Positions 2,731-55,953 of a DNA stretch of 64,000 bases are shown one piece after another. A program made the position numbers and the translations under genes. The DNA comes from an uncultured Pelagibacteraceae bacterium. GTDB taxonomy: Bacteria > Pseudomonadota > Alphaproteobacteria > Pelagibacterales > Pelagibacteraceae. The stretch covers positions 124,001 to 188,000 of the forward strand of contig CACIWZ010000001.1 in assembly GCA_902590505.1 (NCBI GenBank), written 5' to 3'. Within the stretch, counting starts at the first letter, position 1. Each line of letters starts with the position of its first letter. A model generated the notes under the pieces. That model saw only the letters and a program-made list of their open reading frames with translations. It made no database searches and was not told the DNA's origin.

Positions 2731-3186
2731 TTATTTTGATTGTATTTTATTTATTTTTATAGAGATTTGAGCCTTTACTTCTGAATGAAAATTTATATCT
2801 ACTTTGTAAACTCCTATTTTATCGAGATTGTTTTTAAGAATTATCTGAGAGGGGCTAACTTCAACATTGAGTTTTTCTTTAATTAAATTGGTTATCTCCT
2901 TTGGTTTTATTGAGCCGTATAATTCTCCATTTTCTTTAGACTCTTTACTTATCGAAAATGTTTTTTTGTTTACAACGTTAGATATTTCTTTAAATTTATT
3001 TTTAACTTCTACATTTTTTTTGTTTAATTCGTCTTTTTTTTTACTTACAAAATCCTGATTTTCTTTATTAAACCTTAAAGCTTTACCTTTTTTTAGAAGA
3101 TAATTTCTTCCATAACCGTTTTTAACTTTAACTTTATCTCCTATATTTCCTAAATTAAGTATATTTTCTAATAATATTAATTCCAT
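2731..3186 (-). CDS. rplI: 50S ribosomal protein L9
   Basis: Large-subunit protein that binds 23S rRNA and extends from the L1 side of the ribosome. At 151 residues it has standard length. The N-terminal half carries the L9 signature (ILLENILNLGNIGDKVKVKNGYGRNYLLKKGKA), followed by a long Lys-rich helix (about 55-80) and a C-terminal domain containing the ELYGS segment. It begins one base after rpsR ends, so it is translated within the rpsF-rpsR-rplI message. Confidence 0.96.
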   Translation of the reverse strand: MELILLENILNLGNIGDKVKVKNGYGRNYLLKKGKALRFNKENQDFVSKKKDELNKKNVEVKNKFKEISNVVNKKTFSISKESKENGELYGSIKPKEITNLIKEKLNVEVSPSQIILKNNLDKIGVYKVDINFHSEVKAQISIKINKIQSK

Positions 3187-3187
3187 T

Positions 3188-3460
3188 TTAAATAAGTCCT
3201 AGAATTTTTGCTTTTTTAATTTCTTTCGTTAGTTTTTTTTGTTTATTAAAAGAAACAGATGTGATTTTTGAAGAAATAATTTTACCGTTATCAGAAACAT
3301 ATTTTTTTAATAGACCTATGTTTTTGTAATCGATTATTGGCGCATTTTTACTTGATAATGGACATTTTTTTGAGAATTTACCATCATTTTTTTGAAAAAG
3401 ACTTAACTTACTAAGCGAATTAGTATTTCTTTTTTGAAAATTTTTACCTTTTCTTTTCAT
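3188..3460 (-). CDS. rpsR: 30S ribosomal protein S18
   Basis: Small-subunit protein that pairs with S6 on the platform. At 90 residues it is slightly longer than usual because of a basic N-terminal tail (about 1-30). The core IDYKNIGLLKKYVSDNGKI and the basic C-terminal helix match S18. The family often has a CPxC-like cysteine pair just before the core; here only one cysteine (KKCPLSS) remains. Its start overlaps the rpsF stop by four bases (ATGA), suggesting translational coupling with its partner. Confidence 0.94.
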   Translation of the reverse strand: MKRKGKNFQKRNTNSLSKLSLFQKNDGKFSKKCPLSSKNAPIIDYKNIGLLKKYVSDNGKIISSKITSVSFNKQKKLTKEIKKAKILGLI

Positions 3461-3783
3461 ATTGATTTGCTGTTGAAAAACTCATTTTTAGTATCAAGTT
3501 TTTTATATTTAACAGTTAAATATCTTATTATTGATCCATCCACCTTTATCTTTTTTTCTATTTCAATTAGAGTATCTTTATTACCTTCAAATTTATAATG
3601 AATATAAAAACCTTTTTTATAATTTTTAATCTTATTAGCCAAATTTAATAAACCCCATTCTTCAATTTTTATAACTTTACCCGAAGACTTATTTATCAAT
3701 TCATTGTATTTTTCTTTGATTGTTTTAAGTTCTTTTTCGGCCAAATCTTGTTTGGCTACAATAGTATTTTCGTAAAAAGCCAT
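3457..3783 (-). CDS. rpsF: 30S ribosomal protein S6
   Basis: Platform protein of the 30S subunit and partner of S18. It has 108 residues. It opens with the typical beta strand (MAFYENTIVAKQDL), carries the conserved WGLLNLANKI motif and the GFYIHYKFEG strand, and ends with the RYLTVKY segment. It is the first gene of the minus-strand cluster rpsF-rpsR-rplI-dnaB. The 103-base gap to fabD on its 5' side holds a symmetrical element with a TATAAT box on each strand. No S6:S18-binding leader with the known CCG bulge is visible there. Confidence 0.96.
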   Translation of the reverse strand: MAFYENTIVAKQDLAEKELKTIKEKYNELINKSSGKVIKIEEWGLLNLANKIKNYKKGFYIHYKFEGNKDTLIEIEKKIKVDGSIIRYLTVKYKKLDTKNEFFNSKSI

Positions 3784-3834
3784 AATTATTTGCTATTATT
3801 AGTTTTATTATTTATTTGTAAAATCTGGGTTATA

Positions 3835-3853
3835 CTATAATGAAGAATTATAG
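3835..3853. promoter_or_regulatory. Perfect dyad carrying back-to-back TATAAT boxes between rpsF and fabD
   Basis: The sequence is CTATAAT, five bases (GAAGA), then ATTATAG: a perfect 7-base inverted repeat. Each arm contains TATAAT, at 3836-3841 on the plus strand and 3847-3852 read on the minus strand. The plus box is 46 bases before the fabD ATG and the minus box 64 bases before the rpsF ATG, so both are placed as -10 elements of a divergent promoter. No convincing -35 box accompanies either one, so the promoter reading is an inference. Confidence 0.4.
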
Positions 3854-3886
3854 CAATACTAATTATTATTGATTAAACTGAAGAAA

Positions 3887-4825
3887 ATGAGCGCTTTATT
3901 ATTTCCGGGTCAAGGTTCACAAATTGTAGGCATGGGATCAGAATTTTATAATAATTTTGATATTGTGAAAAAAATTTTTAAAGATGCAGATGAAAAATTA
4001 AATTATTCTATATCTAAATTGATTTTAAATGGACCAGAGGATCAGTTACAACTTACTCAAAACACTCAACCATCAATTTTGACTGTAAGCTTTTCAATTT
4101 TTAAGGTCTTAAAAGAAGAGTTTAATTTTGATTTCAATACATTTAATTACTTTGCTGGACATTCTTTAGGAGAATATAGTGCTCTAGTTTGTTCAGAGTC
4201 ATTAAAATTTGAAGACGCACTCTATTTATTATATGAGAGAGGTAAAGCAATGCAAGAGGCAGTTCCAGTCGGGAAGGGAAGTATGCTAGCAATACTTGGT
4301 GCAAAAATTAAAGATATCTCTGATTTGCTTAATTCATTAAAAGAAAAGGGAGTTTGTGAAATTGCTAATGATAATGCGGATGGACAAGTAATTGTCAGTG
4401 GTGATAAAGATAGTGTTGTTTCTTTTCAATCTTTATTGAAAGAAAAAAAGATTAAATCAATACCATTAAAAGTCAGCGCGCCATTTCACTGTTCTTTGAT
4501 GAAATCAGCTGCTGATAAAATGAGCGATAAAATCAAAAATACTAATTTTAGGAGTCCTACGCATTCAATTTTAAGCAATGTAACAGCAAAAATTGAAAAA
4601 AACCCAGAAAACATAAAAAAATTGCTAATCGATCAGATTTTTTCAACTGTTAAATGGCGCGAAACCATTATAAATATTTCTAATGAAGGGGTATCCAATT
4701 TTGTAGAAATTGGACCAGGAAAAGTTTTAACAGGTATGGTAAAAAGAACCGTAAAAAATGTTAATTGTTTTTCAATCAATTCAATCGATGATATTAAAAA
4801 TTTAAAAAATGAATTTAACAAATAA
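3887..4825 (+). CDS. fabD: Malonyl-CoA:ACP transacylase FabD
   Basis: Transfers the malonyl group from CoA to acyl carrier protein, supplying the two-carbon donor for type II fatty-acid synthesis. I chose the ATG at 3887 (312 residues) over the in-frame TTG at 3869, because MSALLFPGQGSQ is the normal family N-terminus. The nucleophile elbow GHSLG has Ser93, the partner histidine is in PFHCS (about 201), and a C-terminal EIGPGKVLTG motif is present. Its end overlaps fabG by 17 bases. It is the first gene of a fabD-fabG-acpP-gmk run. Confidence 0.95.
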   Translation: MSALLFPGQGSQIVGMGSEFYNNFDIVKKIFKDADEKLNYSISKLILNGPEDQLQLTQNTQPSILTVSFSIFKVLKEEFNFDFNTFNYFAGHSLGEYSALVCSESLKFEDALYLLYERGKAMQEAVPVGKGSMLAILGAKIKDISDLLNSLKEKGVCEIANDNADGQVIVSGDKDSVVSFQSLLKEKKIKSIPLKVSAPFHCSLMKSAADKMSDKIKNTNFRSPTHSILSNVTAKIEKNPENIKKLLIDQIFSTVKWRETIINISNEGVSNFVEIGPGKVLTGMVKRTVKNVNCFSINSIDDIKNLKNEFNK

Positions 4826-12474: not shown

Positions 12475-13598
12475 AAATTTTTCGTTTCTTGCGATAGCTT
12501 AATTTTTAAAAAAATATATATAAATATTGCCAAAGCAGCAGGTGAAAATAAGAATACGTTTTTTATAATTTCGTTTATTCCTGTATATCTTATTGTTAAT
12601 TCAGCATACAAAAGAACCAGGAAAGAATAAGCAAATATACTTACTTTACTATAATAAATTCTTCCACTAGTTTTAATAAATAATAATGAGGAAATTAATG
12701 TTATAACTGGAATGAAAAGAGGCAAAACCATTCTTCTATTGAGAGTTGGTAAAATTTCCTCGTTAAAGCCCCCTTTACAAATTGGATCTTTTGAAAATTT
12801 ATTATAAATACAAGAGAATAATCTTAAAGTTGATGTCTCTTGGATTTTCGGTTGCTTGATAGTAGTATTTTCAAGATTTCTTAAATCAATATCAATTTGC
12901 TCAAATTTAATTATGTCATTTTGAGTATTTCCTTTACTTTCAGAAATAATTAACCCATTAAATAAAACAAGTTTTTTTTCTTCTACAATTCCAGTTTTTG
13001 CTATTATTGTTGAAGATGTTTCCGATTCTCGATCAGATGAAATATTTTTCAAAATATTAGACTTATCATGTAAAAATATATTTTTAATTTGATTTTCAAA
13101 CTTATCATCAACAATAAAAGTAAGGCCTTTGAAAGAGTCACTAAATTGCTGAATTTTTAGGGTGGGTAATATTGAGATAATTTTCTCATTTCCAAGAAGT
13201 TTTCTTGACTTATTTAAAGCAGTAGGTGTTATAAAAACTGAAAAAATTAAATGAAACAAGGATATGAATAAGGATAAAAACAAAAATAAATGAATAACTT
13301 GTATTTTTTTTACTCCTGAGGTCCATAAAATAATCAATTCATTTTCTTGTAACTGTCTAATTATAAAGATTGATAAAGCCAGTAGAAATGACAACGGAAT
13401 GAACTTTGTAAGTATTCCAAACAAATTCAAAAAAGAATACTGAAAATAAGTAAAAACAGGGTATCCACTTTCTACTATTAAATCTAAAAAGTTTACGGCT
13501 CTTACAGTCCAGGCAATAATTGCAAGACTAAACAAGATGACTAAAAACAATTTAAAAATCTCAATTATATAGTTATGGTAAATTTTGTTTTGAAGCAT
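12471..13598 (-). CDS. lptF: LPS export permease LptF
   Basis: Second permease of the LptB2FG transporter. It has 375 residues, with N-terminal helices containing an IIRQLQENELIILWTSG segment (the cytoplasmic coupling helix for the LptB ATPase), a periplasmic domain (about 130-260), and C-terminal helices after RRMVLPLFIPV. It is the first gene of the minus-strand envelope block lptF-lptG-lptD-surA-pdxA-ksgA. A 133-base divergent gap separates it from pepA. Confidence 0.92.
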   Translation of the reverse strand: MLQNKIYHNYIIEIFKLFLVILFSLAIIAWTVRAVNFLDLIVESGYPVFTYFQYSFLNLFGILTKFIPLSFLLALSIFIIRQLQENELIILWTSGVKKIQVIHLFLFLSLFISLFHLIFSVFITPTALNKSRKLLGNEKIISILPTLKIQQFSDSFKGLTFIVDDKFENQIKNIFLHDKSNILKNISSDRESETSSTIIAKTGIVEEKKLVLFNGLIISESKGNTQNDIIKFEQIDIDLRNLENTTIKQPKIQETSTLRLFSCIYNKFSKDPICKGGFNEEILPTLNRRMVLPLFIPVITLISSLLFIKTSGRIYYSKVSIFAYSFLVLLYAELTIRYTGINEIIKNVFLFSPAALAIFIYIFLKIKLSQETKNL

Positions 13599-13731
13599 TT
13601 GTATATTTCGTATATAAATAATCTATCCATAAAATAAATTCAACTAATGGTTTAAATATGATAAAATTATCATTGAAAACTTATATTTTTGAACATATAT
13701 CACTGACACAATTAGGTTTTATCTAAAATTT
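13599..13731. other. Divergent intergenic region between lptF and pepA
   Basis: This 133-base AT-rich gap must hold the promoters of the lpt block (leftward) and of pepA-ndk (rightward). A rightward candidate is TTGAAA, 17 bases, then TATATC, ending about 45 bases before the pepA ATG. The match is weak. No hairpin or riboswitch-like structure was noticed. Confidence 0.3.
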
Positions 13732-15189
13732 ATGTCTATCAAGTTTAACTATTTAAAAAAAACAATAAACAAGCCTACAGGCAACGTAGTTTTATTTTCA
13801 AATGAAAAATTTAAAACTAATGAGTTAAAAAAATATCTTTCAAATTTTGAATTTTCTTATATCAACGATTTGTTAAAAAATACTGATTACAAAAAAAACT
13901 TATATATTTTTGAACTTTCTTCAAAAAGAAATATAATTTTAGTATCAATTAAAAAAGATTTAAAAATTTCTGATATTGAAAAACTTGGTGCAGAATTTTT
14001 TGGGAGAATTAATATTGGAGATAGTAAAGATTACTTTATAATTTCAGATACTATTAATAACAAAAACAATAATTTTTTAAGTCATTTCCTTCATGGTGCG
14101 AAACTAAAATCTTATGTATTCAAAAAATATAAAACTAAAAAAGAGAAAAGAGATATTACATTAAATATAACTGGCAATAAAAATAAACCTTCAATTCAAA
14201 ATCAAATCAAATTCAAAGCATTAGAAGAAGGTACATTTTATGCAAGAGATTTAGTATCAGAGCCTGGAAATGTTTTACACCCTGATGAATACGCAAAAAG
14301 ATTAAGTTCTCTTAAAAAAGATGGATTAAAAATTAACATTTATGACGAAAAAAAATTAAAAAAAATGGGCATGCATGCCTTACTTGGAGTAGGTCAAGGA
14401 AGTATTAGAGGCTCGTATTTGGTAACAATGGAATGGAATGGTGCTAAAAACAAATCGAGTCCACTAGCATTTGTAGGAAAAGGAGTTTGTTTTGATACCG
14501 GAGGTTATTCTTTGAAGCCAGCAAAATTTATGGAAGACATGACTTATGATATGGCAGGCTCCGCTGCTGTAGTTGGATTAATGAAAAGCTTGGCTTTAAG
14601 AAAAGCTAAAATCAATGCTATAGGAGTTGTTGGTCTAGTAGAGAATATGGTAAGTGGTAACGCACAAAGACCAGGAGATATTGTAAAATCTTTTAGCGGT
14701 AAAACTATAGAAGTACTAAATACGGATGCAGAGGGAAGATTAGTTTTAGCTGATGCTATTACTTTTACTGAAAAAAAATATAAACCAAAATTTATTATTG
14801 ATTTAGCTACCCTTACAGGAGCAATTATAGTTTCCCTTGGCTCAGAGTATGCTGGACTTTTTTCAAATAACGATGATTTATCGAAAAAAATTTTTAACGC
14901 TGGGGAAAAAGTTGATGAAAAAGTATGGCGTATGCCATTACATAAAAATTACGATAAACTGATGAATTCAAAAAATGCAGATATGCAAAATATAAATTAT
15001 GTAGGGGGTGCTGGGTCAACTACAGCTGCACAATTTCTCCAGAGATTTATCCTGAATAAAACTCCATGGGCTCATTTAGATATTGCTGGGATGGCATTTT
15101 CAAAATATGGAGGAGCTCTAAATTCTGGAGGAGCAACTGGTTTTGGGGTGAGGTTACTTAATGAGCTTATTGAAGAAAATTATGAGTAA
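13732..15189 (+). CDS. pepA: Leucyl (cytosol) aminopeptidase, M17 family
   Basis: Two-metal exopeptidase that removes N-terminal residues from peptides. It has 485 residues. The N-terminal macro-like domain (about 1-165) is divergent. The catalytic domain holds the metal-binding VGKGVCFDTGGYSLKP and MAGSAAVVG segments and the M17 signature NTDAEGRLVLADA. The gene follows lptF divergently, as in many Proteobacteria. The first bases of ndk overlap its end by eight bases. Confidence 0.95.
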   Translation: MSIKFNYLKKTINKPTGNVVLFSNEKFKTNELKKYLSNFEFSYINDLLKNTDYKKNLYIFELSSKRNIILVSIKKDLKISDIEKLGAEFFGRINIGDSKDYFIISDTINNKNNNFLSHFLHGAKLKSYVFKKYKTKKEKRDITLNITGNKNKPSIQNQIKFKALEEGTFYARDLVSEPGNVLHPDEYAKRLSSLKKDGLKINIYDEKKLKKMGMHALLGVGQGSIRGSYLVTMEWNGAKNKSSPLAFVGKGVCFDTGGYSLKPAKFMEDMTYDMAGSAAVVGLMKSLALRKAKINAIGVVGLVENMVSGNAQRPGDIVKSFSGKTIEVLNTDAEGRLVLADAITFTEKKYKPKFIIDLATLTGAIIVSLGSEYAGLFSNNDDLSKKIFNAGEKVDEKVWRMPLHKNYDKLMNSKNADMQNINYVGGAGSTTAAQFLQRFILNKTPWAHLDIAGMAFSKYGGALNSGGATGFGVRLLNELIEENYE

Positions 15190-51935: not shown

Positions 51936-52826
51936 CTAATCTAACCATTCTTTGTAGTTATCAATATTTGACGAGATAAATTTTGGTAACTGGTCTAAAT
52001 CAATTTTTTTTAAAACTGATTTTCCTGACCATTTATAACTTCTCATATCAACATTATGGTCGTACATTACTCTTTTTTCAGAAATTAATTTTTTTAAGTC
52101 ATTAATTTTAAGCCCACTTTCCTCAAATTCATAATGATGAGCAAAATTTAATAATTTCTTTTCTAGTTCTTCTGGAGTTCTCAAACAGGTAAAATGCCAG
52201 CCACCGTTTTTAATATGTAATAAATTTGAGTATTTTTTTTTTGAAAAAAAAGTGTCAATTCTCCATAAAGGATACTTTCTTCCTTTTACATTCCTAAGCC
52301 ATTGAGGTGAAATAAAATTTTTCTTTTTTACTGCTTTGGTTCCTTGCCAATTATAATTCTCATAAAGCAAATTGAATTTATAATAAAACATTTTTTGTTC
52401 AAAAATTGCGATATTATTTTGTATTTTTGAAAGATCCACTACTTCTAAATTAGGAATTTCATCTAGATCACTGATAAATATTAAGTCGTCTTCATGAGCA
52501 GCATTAAGTCCTTTATTCAAATTTTCTCTTTGGTAATAATCTCTAGCCATACCGTTTAAAATAAGCTTTTCTGCTCTTCTATTTTTAGAGTCATTGTCAC
52601 TTAATTTTAAAATATTTTCTGGATGCTGATCTACAACAATGTAAATAATCTTATCCTCAAATTTTTTAAATTTATTAATATCAAACTGAAGTTTCTTTTT
52701 ACTTCCATTATGTGTGTAAGTGGCCTCAGTAATAACGAATTTTTTGACAAAATTATTTAGAACATTTAGCCTTAAATCTAGAAGTAAATCCTCATCAAAA
52801 TACATAAAGCAGTCATAAATGTTCAT
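51936..52826 (-). CDS. Glycosyltransferase family 17
   Basis: Resembles GT17 beta-1,4-N-acetylglucosaminyltransferases (the eukaryotic MGAT3 family). It has 296 residues from the ATG at 52826 (MNIYDCFMYFDEDLLLDLRLNVL), a better start than that at 52865. The family features are clear: VKKFVITEATYTHNGSKK, the acidic donor-binding motif FISDLDEIPN, and WRIDTF and GGWHFTCLRTPEEL. No signal peptide or membrane segment, so cytoplasmic. The true sugar and acceptor are unknown. It is divergent from the fusion enzyme, 53 bases away, suggesting a joint glycan role. Confidence 0.82.
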   Translation of the reverse strand: MNIYDCFMYFDEDLLLDLRLNVLNNFVKKFVITEATYTHNGSKKKLQFDINKFKKFEDKIIYIVVDQHPENILKLSDNDSKNRRAEKLILNGMARDYYQRENLNKGLNAAHEDDLIFISDLDEIPNLEVVDLSKIQNNIAIFEQKMFYYKFNLLYENYNWQGTKAVKKKNFISPQWLRNVKGRKYPLWRIDTFFSKKKYSNLLHIKNGGWHFTCLRTPEELEKKLLNFAHHYEFEESGLKINDLKKLISEKRVMYDHNVDMRSYKWSGKSVLKKIDLDQLPKFISSNIDNYKEWLD

Positions 52827-52879
52827 GATATTTGAGTTATAATAAAATATAATATAAGTAAACATTAATTAAAAAACAT

Positions 52880-55423
52880 ATGAAGAAAAAAATCATAATT
52901 ACTGGTGGTTTAGGATATATAGGCACTGAATTATGTAAACTATATTCAGGTGTAAGCTGGCATCATAATATTTATGTAATCGATAACAGGTTTATCTCAG
53001 AAAGAGTTAATCAATTAAGAAATTGGAATATTGAATTTATCCATGGAGATATACTAGATAAAAATTTAGTTGAAAAAATTTTTAAAGATGCAGATGTTGT
53101 GCATCACCTTGCTGGCGTAACTGATGTTCCTAGGACAAAAAGTGAATCTTCTTCTACAAAAGATGATAAAATAAAAATTGTTGGTGAAAAAGGGACACAG
53201 AATATTTTAGATGTGATTACTAAAAAATGTAAAATAATTTTTCCCTCTACTCATGTTGTTTATGAGGGGGTAAATGAGGTAAGGAAAAATATAAAAGAGA
53301 ATGAAAAAACGCAGCCTGTTTTATCTTATTCATCTTCAAAAGCATTTAACGAAGCTCAACTAAAGGAGTCAGGTAAAAATTATATTATACTAAGATTAGG
53401 ATCAGTTTATGGTTATTCCTCTGACACAATGCGTATTGATATAATGCCTAATTTATTTTCAAAAATTGCATCACAAAATGGGACCTTAAAGCTTTTCGCT
53501 GGAGGAAGACAAATAAAAAGCCTAGTTCCTTTAATTGATGTAGCTAGATGTTTTAAATTTATGGAAGAAAAAGAAAATTTTAACTCAGAGATTTTTAACT
53601 TAACAAAAGACACTTTAACAGTGAAAGAAGTTGCAGAAATTTGTAAAAAACATAACCCAAGAATTAGATTACAAGAAACAAACGATGAAGTCCCAAATCT
53701 TGGGTTTTCACTATCAAACAAAAAACTATTAAATACTGGTTTTCAATTTTTATATGGAATTGACGAATGCATAAAAGAGATGATCCAAAAATGGTCAAAA
53801 CAAAATATTAGTAAAGAATTAGAGTATGTTAGAGATGGAGAAGACCTTTTCATAGATAAAAGGGGCATGATAAGCAATCATGAGCTAACTGAGCCTATAA
53901 ATTTGATAGGCCTTATAGACTCAAAAAAAGGCACTATCAGAGCAAATCATTATCACCCACAGCAAGAACAAAAATGTTTGTTTACTAAAGGACAAATTAT
54001 TGAAGTTTTCCAAGATATTATAAATCCTAATTCTCCAAAAATTACACAAGTTGTTAATGCTGGCCAACTTTCAGTAATTAAACCCAATGTTGCCCACACT
54101 ATGGTGTTTTCAAAAGACACAACGTTTTTAAATTTAGTAAGAGGTGAAAGAGACCACGATAATTATGGAATTACCCACACAATTAAACATGTTTTTGTCG
54201 ATGAAGAAGAAAAAAACTTATTATTGAAATATTATAAATTCGATTGCAGATCATGTGGAAATACAAATTTAAAAAGAGTTGTATCTCTAGGTTACCAACC
54301 ACTTGCCAACAATCTTCTTAAAAAGAGAAATGAAAAATGTGAATTATATCCATTAGAGGTAAACTACTGTGATAAATGTTATAACTGTCAGCTATCAATA
54401 TCTGTAGATCCTAAAAAAATGTTTTCAAACTATCTTTATACTTCTTCAACATCAAAGATATTTAGAAATCATTTTGTTGATGCATCAAAAAAGTATATTA
54501 AAGAGCTTAAATTAAAAAAAAAATCTTACATAATTGACATTGGAAGTAATGATGGAGTTGCACTTAAGCCTTTTTTAGATCAAGGATTTAAGAAAATCTT
54601 AGGCATAGAACCAGCTAAAAATTTAGCAAAATTAGCCAATAAAAATAAAATCAAAACTTTGAATGGTTTCTTAAATAAAAAGAATATTAAAAAAATTAAA
54701 AAAAATGCAGATTTAATCTTAGCATCAAATGTTTTTGCTCATTCAGATGAATTAAAAGAAATGGCTGAGTGCATGTTTAAGCTGTTGAATAAGAAAGGAA
54801 CTATTGTAATAGAAGTACAATATTTGATGAATACATTAAAAGATTTAACTTTTGATAACATATATCACGAACATTATAATTATTGGTCATTAACTTCTCT
54901 GGTAAATTTTTTTAATAGATTTGAAGGCAAAATATTTAGATCAGAAAGAGTTAACACACATGGTGGCTCATTAAGAGTATACATTAAAAAAGATAAAAAA
55001 GTAAAAATTGAGCAAAGTGTGAAACTCATGCTTAAAGAAGAGGAGAAGTTTGGAATAAAAAATTTTCAAACTTACAAAGAGTTTGGTGAAAAGGTTTATA
55101 AAATAAGAGAAAATGTGAGAAGAAATATTAAAAAACTTAAAAATAATAACAGTTTAATTATCGGTTACGGCGCACCTGCTAAAGCTACTACTGCTCTTAA
55201 CTTTTTTGGAATTTCTAAAGAAATTGACTTTATTGTTGAGGACAACAAGCTTAAACATAATAAATTTATACCAGGGGTTAAAATTCCAATTAAAAATAAA
55301 TTACAAATTAAAAATAAAAAGAATACGCTTATAGTTCTAGCGTGGAATTTTTATAAAGATATTAAAAAAAATAACTCTAGTCTTTCAGAAAATATTATTA
55401 ATATTAAAGATTTAGAAAACTAA
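52880..55423 (+). CDS. Three-part fusion: NAD-dependent epimerase/dehydratase, cupin, sugar C-methyltransferase
   Basis: 847 residues made of three recognisable parts in one open frame. Residues 1-310 are an extended SDR epimerase/dehydratase with GGLGYIG (9-15) and Tyr150-xxx-Lys154. Residues about 330-445 are a cupin with HYHPQQEQ (357-364) and a following histidine (PNVAHT), resembling the cupin of CapF-type SDR-cupin enzymes. Residues about 455-847 are a sugar-type C-methyltransferase: CxxC pairs at 456/459 and 497/500, SAM loop IDIGSNDG (552-559), EHYNYW (664-669) and GYGAPAKATT (762-771). It probably makes and C-methylates a deoxysugar nucleotide, substrate unknown. Confidence 0.88.
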   Translation: MKKKIIITGGLGYIGTELCKLYSGVSWHHNIYVIDNRFISERVNQLRNWNIEFIHGDILDKNLVEKIFKDADVVHHLAGVTDVPRTKSESSSTKDDKIKIVGEKGTQNILDVITKKCKIIFPSTHVVYEGVNEVRKNIKENEKTQPVLSYSSSKAFNEAQLKESGKNYIILRLGSVYGYSSDTMRIDIMPNLFSKIASQNGTLKLFAGGRQIKSLVPLIDVARCFKFMEEKENFNSEIFNLTKDTLTVKEVAEICKKHNPRIRLQETNDEVPNLGFSLSNKKLLNTGFQFLYGIDECIKEMIQKWSKQNISKELEYVRDGEDLFIDKRGMISNHELTEPINLIGLIDSKKGTIRANHYHPQQEQKCLFTKGQIIEVFQDIINPNSPKITQVVNAGQLSVIKPNVAHTMVFSKDTTFLNLVRGERDHDNYGITHTIKHVFVDEEEKNLLLKYYKFDCRSCGNTNLKRVVSLGYQPLANNLLKKRNEKCELYPLEVNYCDKCYNCQLSISVDPKKMFSNYLYTSSTSKIFRNHFVDASKKYIKELKLKKKSYIIDIGSNDGVALKPFLDQGFKKILGIEPAKNLAKLANKNKIKTLNGFLNKKNIKKIKKNADLILASNVFAHSDELKEMAECMFKLLNKKGTIVIEVQYLMNTLKDLTFDNIYHEHYNYWSLTSLVNFFNRFEGKIFRSERVNTHGGSLRVYIKKDKKVKIEQSVKLMLKEEEKFGIKNFQTYKEFGEKVYKIRENVRRNIKKLKNNNSLIIGYGAPAKATTALNFFGISKEIDFIVEDNKLKHNKFIPGVKIPIKNKLQIKNKKNTLIVLAWNFYKDIKKNNSSLSENIINIKDLEN

Positions 55424-55953
55424 TGATTAGTAACTAAACTTTTCCATATTTCAAAAATATTTCTTATACTTTCAAAAAAATAATTCAGATAGTATTCAGA
55501 TGCAGGAAGATAAGAAATGATGAAATTTTGAGAAAAATATAATATACGCGAGAATGCAATCACTAAAAATATGAATACAATTAATGAATTATAGAATCCG
55601 AACGAAATTTTTTCCTTTTCAATTTTATTAGTTGCCTTTACAGGTCTTGTATCATTTATTTTAATACCATGTTTCTTTGCAAGATATTCTGGAGAGTATA
55701 GACTTATTTCTCTCGGTTTCTTTACAATGTTTTTTTTGGTTTTTTTTGGTTTTTGTATTGTTGGTTGAACAGGTTGAGATTTTGATATCGTTTTTTTTGG
55801 CTTAGAAGTAACTGGAGTTTTTTTAATTTCATTTAGAGGATATTGTCTCCACTTATTCCCACAAGAGCCACATTGAACCATTCTTCCAGAGACAGTTATT
55901 GCATTATCTGGAACAACAAATTTTTTACCGCATGAATTACAACTTAAAATCAT
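55420..55953 (-). CDS. Zinc-ribbon membrane protein (MJ0042 type)
   Basis: Function unknown. It has 177 residues. An N-terminal zinc ribbon with two CxxC pairs (LSCNSCGKKF and VQCGSCGNKW) is followed by a Lys/Pro-rich linker (about 45-100), a short EYLAKKHGI-containing segment and one transmembrane helix (about 118-140). This is the pattern of MJ0042-family proteins, which often act as small membrane-linked sensors or scaffolds in Alphaproteobacteria. CTAA at 55420-55423 serves as stop for both this gene and the fusion. Confidence 0.72.
   Translation of the reverse strand: MILSCNSCGKKFVVPDNAITVSGRMVQCGSCGNKWRQYPLNEIKKTPVTSKPKKTISKSQPVQPTIQKPKKTKKNIVKKPREISLYSPEYLAKKHGIKINDTRPVKATNKIEKEKISFGFYNSLIVFIFLVIAFSRILYFSQNFIISYLPASEYYLNYFFESIRNIFEIWKSLVTNH

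What the first reader, a model, noticed from the sequence alone, without database searches (positions are those of the whole stretch)
52880..55423. Single 847-residue epimerase-cupin-C-methyltransferase polypeptide
Three enzyme-type domains normally coded as separate genes, or at most SDR plus cupin as in CapF, form one open frame. Every active-site motif looks intact: GGLGYIG with YxxxK, the cupin HYHPQQEQ, and CxxC pairs plus a SAM loop and GYGAPAKATT in the methyltransferase. Such an enzyme could take one nucleotide-sugar through oxidation/epimerisation, isomerisation and C-methylation without releasing it. I know of no characterised enzyme with exactly this order.
Basis: partly seen in the sequence, partly recalled or inferred. 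Interest (0 to 1): 0.72.

Follow-up and report, generated by a model that had tools for sequence, protein, structure and literature searches.

The report
Three-in-one sugar-methylating enzyme, SAR11 and phages
A single long protein joins three sugar-modifying enzymes that are usually separate; most close relatives of this ocean bacterium carry it, and so do many phages, which suggests a dedicated way of making one unusual methyl-branched sugar.

Summary
Window 52880-55423 (+) is one 847-residue frame: an NAD-type SDR (about 1-305), a sugar cupin (about 308-452) and a sugar C-methyltransferase (455-847). It is not an assembly error. Of 61 genus genomes 53 have a match at E<=1e-100 (45 spanning the protein), and 39 of 45 viral-contig loci and a 642-kb phage have all three parts in one frame. 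Catalytic residues are kept and selection is purifying.

So it is neither unique nor chance, but a real, apparently uncharacterised fused enzyme of SAR11 (Pelagibacteraceae) and large phages. Four viral contigs hold SDR-cupin and methyltransferase as separate genes, overlapping in three. A glycosyltransferase is often next door: GT17 or, at other sites, a tandem GT2.

Best mechanism: the SDR oxidises C4 of a nucleotide sugar with bound NAD (closest solved relative Cj1427, a C4-dehydrogenase). The cupin epimerises or isomerises the 4-keto sugar, the methyltransferase adds CH3 at C3, and the SDR may re-reduce C4. The neighbouring GT uses the product.

Shown: architecture, conservation, motifs, folds, distribution. 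Inferred: step order, position, nucleotide, redox balance. Main rival: a CapF-like last-steps enzyme fed by a separate 4,6-dehydratase. Novelty: new variant of a known kind.

The parts
52880..55423 (+). complete three-domain gene, 847 aa
   Evidence: homologs
52880..53794 (+). SDR (extended, NAD-type) domain, residues 1-305: GGLGYIG, D35 at the end of the second strand, S123-T124-H125, Y150xxxK154
   Evidence: PF01370; best solved relative Cj1427 6vo6 E 6.2e-24 and best structural match for this part; conservation
53801..54235 (+). sugar-type cupin domain, residues 308-452, H357xH359, E363, H406
   Evidence: PF14667 in 47 of 53 members at E<=0.01, window copy below Pfam's cut-off; AlphaFold pLDDT 88.4; VIA Z 13.0 to a 3,4-ketoisomerase, 12.6 to a dTDP sugar isomerase (3ejk), 11.5 to CapF, about 11 to RmlC-like epimerases
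54242..55420 (+). sugar C-methyltransferase domain, residues 455-847: CxxC...CxxC, SAM loop, YHEH (662-665), C-terminal GYGAPAKATT
   Evidence: PF08421, PF13489, PF08484; MtmC 4rv9 E 7e-60, TcaB9 E 4e-44; Foldseek MtmC rmsd 2.1 over 402 columns
51936..52865 (-). divergent neighbour gene, GT17 glycosyltransferase; many homologs start at the internal MNIYDCF-like Met (about 296 aa), so the true start is probably near 52826
   Evidence: PF04724 E 2.3e-17; GT17 directly upstream in 47 of 78 cellular loci and, in tandem, 6 of 42 viral or MAG loci; ORF lengths

Best explanation
A trifunctional nucleotide-sugar C-methylase that works as a self-contained unit. (1) The N-terminal SDR, holding NAD tightly, oxidises the C4 hydroxyl of a common nucleotide-diphosphate sugar to a 4-ketone (inferred from Cj1427 kinship, the invariant Asp35 and the lack of dehydratase residues). 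(2) The cupin uses the acidified alpha-carbon to epimerise C3 and/or C5, or to shift the ketone (fold and HxH motif shown; which reaction is inferred). (3) The C-terminal domain, with the TcaB9/MtmC catalytic residues intact, transfers CH3 from SAM to C3 through an enolate (residues shown; position inferred from the family). (4) The NADH left on the SDR may return its hydride to C4, making the cycle redox-neutral (speculative). (5) The neighbouring glycosyltransferase (GT17, or GT2 at other sites) attaches the branched sugar to a surface glycan or protein (inferred from gene pairing).
For: SDR: best solved relative by sequence is Cj1427, and in the full-length model it is the top match for that part. 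Cj1427 is a C4-dehydrogenase with tightly bound NADH acting on GDP-manno-heptose, followed there by a C3/C5-epimerase and a C4-reductase (PMC10680097, passages). Asp35 is invariant in the 140 of 141 rows that have a letter there, and His125-Val126 follow the catalytic Thr, where 4,6-dehydratases carry an acid pair (recalled). MT: TcaB9 Y76, H181, Y222, E224, H225 (mutants named in PDB titles) align with Y518, H621, Y662, E664, H665 (the mapping takes the chain index as title number plus 2, which fits the Y-x-E-H pattern); the last four are invariant in 141 rows, Y518 in the 50 rows of A6. Self-contained: a fusion match is in 53 of 61 genus genomes and 12 of 12 near-complete ones, 11 of those 12 spanning the protein, while RmlB is over cut-off in 43, GMD in 11 and RfbG in 39; G038, G053 and G060 carry the fusion and none of the three at E<=1e-60. 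It stands alone among housekeeping genes in one SAR86 genome and beside ribonucleotide reductase in the phage contig L064 and its near-copies. Selection: pairwise dN/dS 0.02-0.11 in the 11 of 15 comparisons that could be computed. GT partner.
Against: No activity is known. The characterised relatives of the methyltransferase work in deoxysugar pathways (recalled: 4-keto-6-deoxy substrates), normally fed by a separate dehydratase. Cupin sequence matches are weak and its structural neighbours mix ketoisomerases, CapF and 3,5-epimerases. Dehydratase absences are in 80-98% complete genomes, so some are gaps; only three dehydratase families were looked for (not PseB, CapE or LegB types); 58 of 61 genomes have at least one of the three (E<=1e-60). 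GT17 genes of phages and window are only 26-35% identical, against 52-59% for the fusion, so that pairing may have arisen twice. GT17 occurs in 58 of 61 genus genomes, often in extra copies, and 22 of 78 cellular loci have neither GT17 nor GT2 directly upstream.
Confidence: 0.48

Rival explanations
1. CapF-like last-steps enzyme: a separate 4,6-dehydratase makes a 4-keto-6-deoxy sugar; the cupin epimerises it, the methyltransferase methylates C3, and the SDR is the final C4 reductase.
For: CapF has the same SDR-cupin order, with cupin epimerisation and then NADPH reduction by the SDR (PMC5393024, passages); CapF is the only sugar-enzyme match of the cupin profile in the PDB, though weak (E 0.13), and a structural match (Z 11.5); RmlB is over cut-off in 43 of 61 genus genomes and 58 of 61 have at least one of RmlB, GMD or RfbG at E<=1e-60; SDR genes matching PF16363/PF01370 (best E 1.3e-143) lie directly beside the fusion in 6 of 56 viral neighbours scanned; a cluster of aminotransferase-type genes, of which the one tested (L020) is RfbH-like, occurs in 13 of 50 viral or MAG loci.
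Against: Invariant Asp35 argues for NAD rather than NADPH (inference); nearest solved SDR is a C4-dehydrogenase, not a reductase; no one of three tested dehydratases accompanies the fusion throughout.
Confidence: 0.32
2. The cupin is a 3,4-ketoisomerase, so that the methyl group ends up beside a 3-keto intermediate (attack at C4 or C2) rather than a 4-keto one.
For: The best structural matches of the cupin are mostly 3,4-ketoisomerases (HCAN_0198 Z 13.0, WlaRB 12.4, FdtD 12.3), whose His pair (H49/H51 in the Aneurinibacillus enzyme, named in PDB titles) has the same HxH spacing.
Against: By sequence the family is nearer PF14667 (47 of 53 members) than any ketoisomerase family; Z differences to CapF and RmlC are small.
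Confidence: 0.15
3. Assembly join of three separate genes.
Against: Same frame in many separate genomes and viral contigs.
Confidence: 0.005

Closest known systems
MtmC / TcaB9 / KijD1 sugar 3-C-methyltransferases (4rv9, 3ndi, 5t64)
   Same: Whole-length fold (rmsd 1.6-2.7 over 386-402 columns, TM by target 0.88-0.92) and all five TcaB9 catalytic residues.
   Different: Those are stand-alone enzymes of antibiotic deoxysugar pathways (recalled); here the domain is fused to SDR and cupin.
Cj1427 GDP-heptose C4-dehydrogenase (6vo6)
   Same: Closest solved SDR by sequence and structure; uses NAD.
   Different: Stand-alone; its epimerase and reductase partners are separate enzymes (passages). About 26% identity only.
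CapF (SDR-cupin bifunctional enzyme)
   Same: SDR followed by a PF14667-like cupin with HxH.
   Different: No methyltransferase; SDR is an NADPH reductase; sequence similarity of the cupin is marginal.
FdtA/QdtA/FdtD 3,4-ketoisomerases
   Same: Cupin fold, HxH pair; FdtD is also a fusion.
   Different: FdtD is fused to an acetyltransferase; no family-level sequence match here.
Leisingera SDR-methyltransferase protein and Brachyspira cupin-methyltransferase gene pair (plasmids L022, L021)
   Same: Other partial combinations of the same parts, near rfbF.
   Different: The Leisingera protein shows no cupin match and only a weak SDR match (23.9 bits); the Brachyspira pair is unfused.

Membership tests
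Sugar 3-C-methyltransferase (MtmC/TcaB9) | PF08421 + class I SAM domain + PF08484 | tested here: met
Sugar 3-C-methyltransferase (MtmC/TcaB9) | catalytic Y76, H181, Y222, E224, H225 (TcaB9 numbering) | tested here: met
   Y518, H621, Y662, E664, H665; conservation
Sugar 3-C-methyltransferase (MtmC/TcaB9) | methylates C3 of a 4-keto sugar | not testable with these tools
   needs enzyme assay
NAD-dependent C4-dehydrogenase (Cj1427) | closest solved relative by sequence and fold | tested here: met
NAD-dependent C4-dehydrogenase (Cj1427) | tightly bound NADH, re-oxidised by alpha-ketoglutarate | not testable with these tools
   known for Cj1427
CapF | SDR then PF14667-type cupin on one chain | tested here: inconclusive
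   order met; PF14667 match of the window copy is below Pfam's cut-off
CapF | NADPH-dependent SDR, zinc in cupin | not testable with these tools
   Asp35 suggests NAD, inference only
3,4-ketoisomerase | cupin fold with HxH catalytic pair | tested here: inconclusive
   fold and spacing fit; no family HMM match
GT17 (neighbour gene) | PF04724 over its cut-off | tested here: met
   63.5 bits vs 26

The most novel reading that the evidence does not exclude
A dehydratase-independent, redox-neutral C-methyl-branched-sugar synthase: one polypeptide with bound NAD takes a primary nucleotide sugar, oxidises it, inverts or isomerises it, adds a methyl group to ring carbon and restores the alcohol, giving a new branched sugar with SAM as the only consumed co-substrate. 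SAR11 bacteria fixed it as a near-universal gene, and large phages carry it, with swappable glycosyltransferases, to build or copy a surface glycan.
Probability: 0.3. Interest if true: 0.72.

Novelty: new variant of a known kind. Interest (0 to 1): 0.52.

Why it matters
SAR11 genomes are small and streamlined (recalled), yet 53 of 61 genus genomes show this 2.5-kb gene. A C-methyl-branched sugar on SAR11 surfaces would be an unexpected, testable trait that may bear on phage adsorption, and phages encode the same fused enzyme. For enzymology it offers a possible natural one-chain route to branched sugars, and some phage contigs hold an unfused state.

Tried and rejected
Assembly artefact: rejected. 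SDR as a 4,6-dehydratase: the residues after the catalytic Thr/Ser are His-Val in all 141 rows; the dTDP-glucose dehydratase model scores 64.8 against a cut-off of 365. Substrate nucleotide: not resolved. CDP hints (RfbF near the Brachyspira pair and the Leisingera protein; an RfbH-like gene in L020) and GDP hints (GMD-like in L063 and a heptose kinase/guanylyltransferase-like fusion in L109, all below cut-off) conflict. A wider spread in Pseudomonadota: of 398 genomes sampled only the window's own matched at E<=1e-130; in a sample of 151 genomes of the SAR86 genome's order only that genome itself matched. Cupin against the PDB by single sequence: no credible match. Literature: searches returned nothing and 79 returned two papers that look unrelated from the listing; these are narrow word searches, so absence from print is not shown. 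Dropped rows: the 141-row set needs one frame of at least 780 aa matching all three domains (drops L047, L067, L035 and the six unfused or cut viral loci), and it holds duplicates (122 distinct; 13 of 23 G-handle rows repeat genome contigs rows). The tree (89 rows plus one joined row) uses an 88% identity filter. The genome-contig scan kept only its best 80 of 316 confirmed relatives, so the neighbour counts rest on those. One search scanned 56 of the 67 neighbours listed (near-duplicate contigs and L109 left out). Foldseek's viral library was not searched.

Full report
OBSERVATION. The frame at 52880-55423 on the plus strand is real, 847 aa, without interruption. Pfam assigns SDR, zinc-binding, SAM and C-terminal C-methyltransferase domains over their cut-offs. 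The middle part has no family over cut-off; PF14667 is best at E 0.005 for the window and 47 of 53 members match it at E<=0.01. An AlphaFold model of that part has pLDDT 88.4 and aligns to 3,4-ketoisomerases (best Z 13.0), a dTDP sugar isomerase (12.6), CapF (11.5) and RmlC-type epimerases (about 11), so it is a sugar cupin whose exact reaction is undecided. The whole-protein model (pLDDT 88.2, pTM 0.68) matches MtmC, KijD1 and TcaB9 for the methyltransferase and Cj1427 for the SDR.

NOT CHANCE, NOT ASSEMBLY. Among 61 genus genomes of at least 80% completeness, 53 have a match at E<=1e-100; in 45 it spans at least 838 residues, in the rest it is shorter or, in G153, broken. All 12 near-complete genomes match, 11 of them over the whole length (G165 over 1-256 only). 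In the earlier set of relatives, 53 rows, all own or same genus, cover at least 838 of 847 residues at 76% identity or more, and no listed match outside the genus spans the three domains. G041 has a broken copy. Pairwise dN/dS against five relatives is 0.02-0.11 in 11 of 15 domain comparisons; the other four gave no dS, and many of the dS values exceed 1.

VIRUSES. A 642-kb phage record (LR756502) holds an 867-aa homolog at 56% identity over 96% of the protein. A first viral scan gave 14 loci and an alignment scan 45, which include those 14. In 39 of the 45, all three domains match in one frame (recount); two of these frames are short, L067 cut by the contig end and L047 with a broken 5' part. 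Several contigs are near-copies (for example L039/L045, L050/L051, L064 and its kin); the viral rows used for conservation, L020 included, hold 32 distinct sequences out of 38. The six exceptions: L073 split near the end of the SDR; L078 cut by the contig end; L075, L077, L079 and L080 with an SDR-cupin gene and a separate methyltransferase gene (close to ours in L079, divergent in the other three). In L079, L075 and L080 those two genes overlap; in L077 another gene lies between. These look like the state before fusion, or its reversal. Contig L064 carries a family B DNA polymerase gene and, next to the fusion, a ribonucleotide reductase gene with a B12-dependent-type insertion domain, as expected of a viral genome; other contigs were not tested for viral hallmarks beyond their place in IMG/VR.

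TREE. The Pelagibacteraceae rows (window included) plus a Caspian MAG (L087) form one side of a branch (55 rows, SH-aLRT 100). The viral rows, with a SAR86 genome (L082), a Patescibacteria MAG (L081) and a Nanoarchaeota MAG (L109), form the other (35 rows) (quick method, midpoint root, so direction of transfer is not settled). In L082 the gene follows dnaG- and rpoD-like genes (read by eye; next-door genes Pfam YrbL, and MMPL below cut-off). In a sample of 151 genomes of that order only that genome itself matched.

LOCATION AND PARTNERS. In SAR11 the gene is usually between lon and the nuo operon: lon upstream in 54 of 69 cellular loci with at least 3.5 kb upstream, nuoA/B downstream in 47 of 61 with at least 2.5 kb downstream. 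In others it sits elsewhere among housekeeping genes (by eye). The gene directly upstream is a divergent GT17 in 47 of 78 cellular loci and a tandem GT2 (gap 0-9) in 7; 22 have another gene and 2 end there; one of these has GT17 downstream. Pfam confirmed GT2 in the four tested and GT17 in the one tested, and L092 has a TPR-GT41 protein upstream. Five loci away from lon keep the divergent GT17 (L088, L090, L145, L159, L160), but they share neighbours and so are one alternative site; the seven GT2 loci lie at several sites. Of 42 viral or MAG loci with the fused frame, 6 have GT17 directly upstream in tandem. Phage and window GT17 are only 26-35% identical, so common ancestry of the pair is not shown.

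MECHANISM. TcaB9 catalytic residues map onto identical residues. The SDR keeps YxxxK and an invariant Asp35, and lacks dehydratase residues (the dehydratase and NAD rules are recalled). The nearest solved SDR, Cj1427, oxidises C4 of GDP-manno-heptose with tightly bound NAD, and there a C3/C5-epimerase follows (PMC10680097, passages only). I therefore favour oxidation, epimerisation or isomerisation, C3 methylation, and possible re-reduction on one chain. None of three tested 4,6-dehydratases tracks the fusion: RmlB over cut-off in 43 of 61, RfbG in 39, GMD in 11; at E<=1e-60 G038, G053 and G060 have the fusion and none of the three. These genomes are incomplete, other dehydratases were not looked for, and 58 of 61 have at least one of the three, so this is modest evidence. 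The CapF-like alternative (PMC5393024, passages only) remains open at about 0.32.

NOVELTY. Each domain belongs to a known kind; no PDB chain spans more than one of the three domains, the only PHROG matched covers the SDR part, and my narrow paper searches found no description. I rate it a new variant of a known kind, interest 0.52: well supported as a conserved fused enzyme, unproven in chemistry.

Noticed in passing
L020:1981-3282, 12511-13272, 13269-14522: The 642-kb phage carries an RfbH-like gene (356.6 bits, below the 423 cut-off), NAD synthase (PF02540) and a nucleotide-sugar dehydrogenase (189.2 bits, cut-off 189.8) near the fusion.
   Followed up: partly
L069:8001-11375: One viral contig has a 1124-aa version with about 250 extra C-terminal residues that look like an FkbM-type methyltransferase by eye; FkbM domains occur in 4 of 56 viral neighbour genes scanned.
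   Followed up: no
L109:3890-5935 and 2941-3888: Nanoarchaeota MAG contig with a 681-aa protein matching a heptose-1-phosphate guanylyltransferase-like part and a heptose kinase-like part (both below cut-off), beside an SDR and near the fusion.
   Followed up: partly
L103:11347-13687, L083:3893-5860, L158:10787-12751: Variable insertions near the fusion in some SAR11 genomes: a 517-aa protein (membrane-like by eye) plus a 267-aa protein before nuoA, or a 654-655-aa protein between the fusion and the small CxxC-protein gene.
   Followed up: no
window 55420-55953 (-): The 177-aa CxxC-rich protein downstream overlaps the end of the fusion by four bases tail to tail; a homolog lies downstream in 41 of 61 cellular loci with enough sequence, often overlapping.
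   Followed up: partly
viral rows of the fusion, residues 456, 459, 497, 500: The methyltransferase zinc cysteines are lost in part of the phage proteins (C456 kept in 29 of 38 rows) while all 103 cellular rows keep C456.
   Followed up: no
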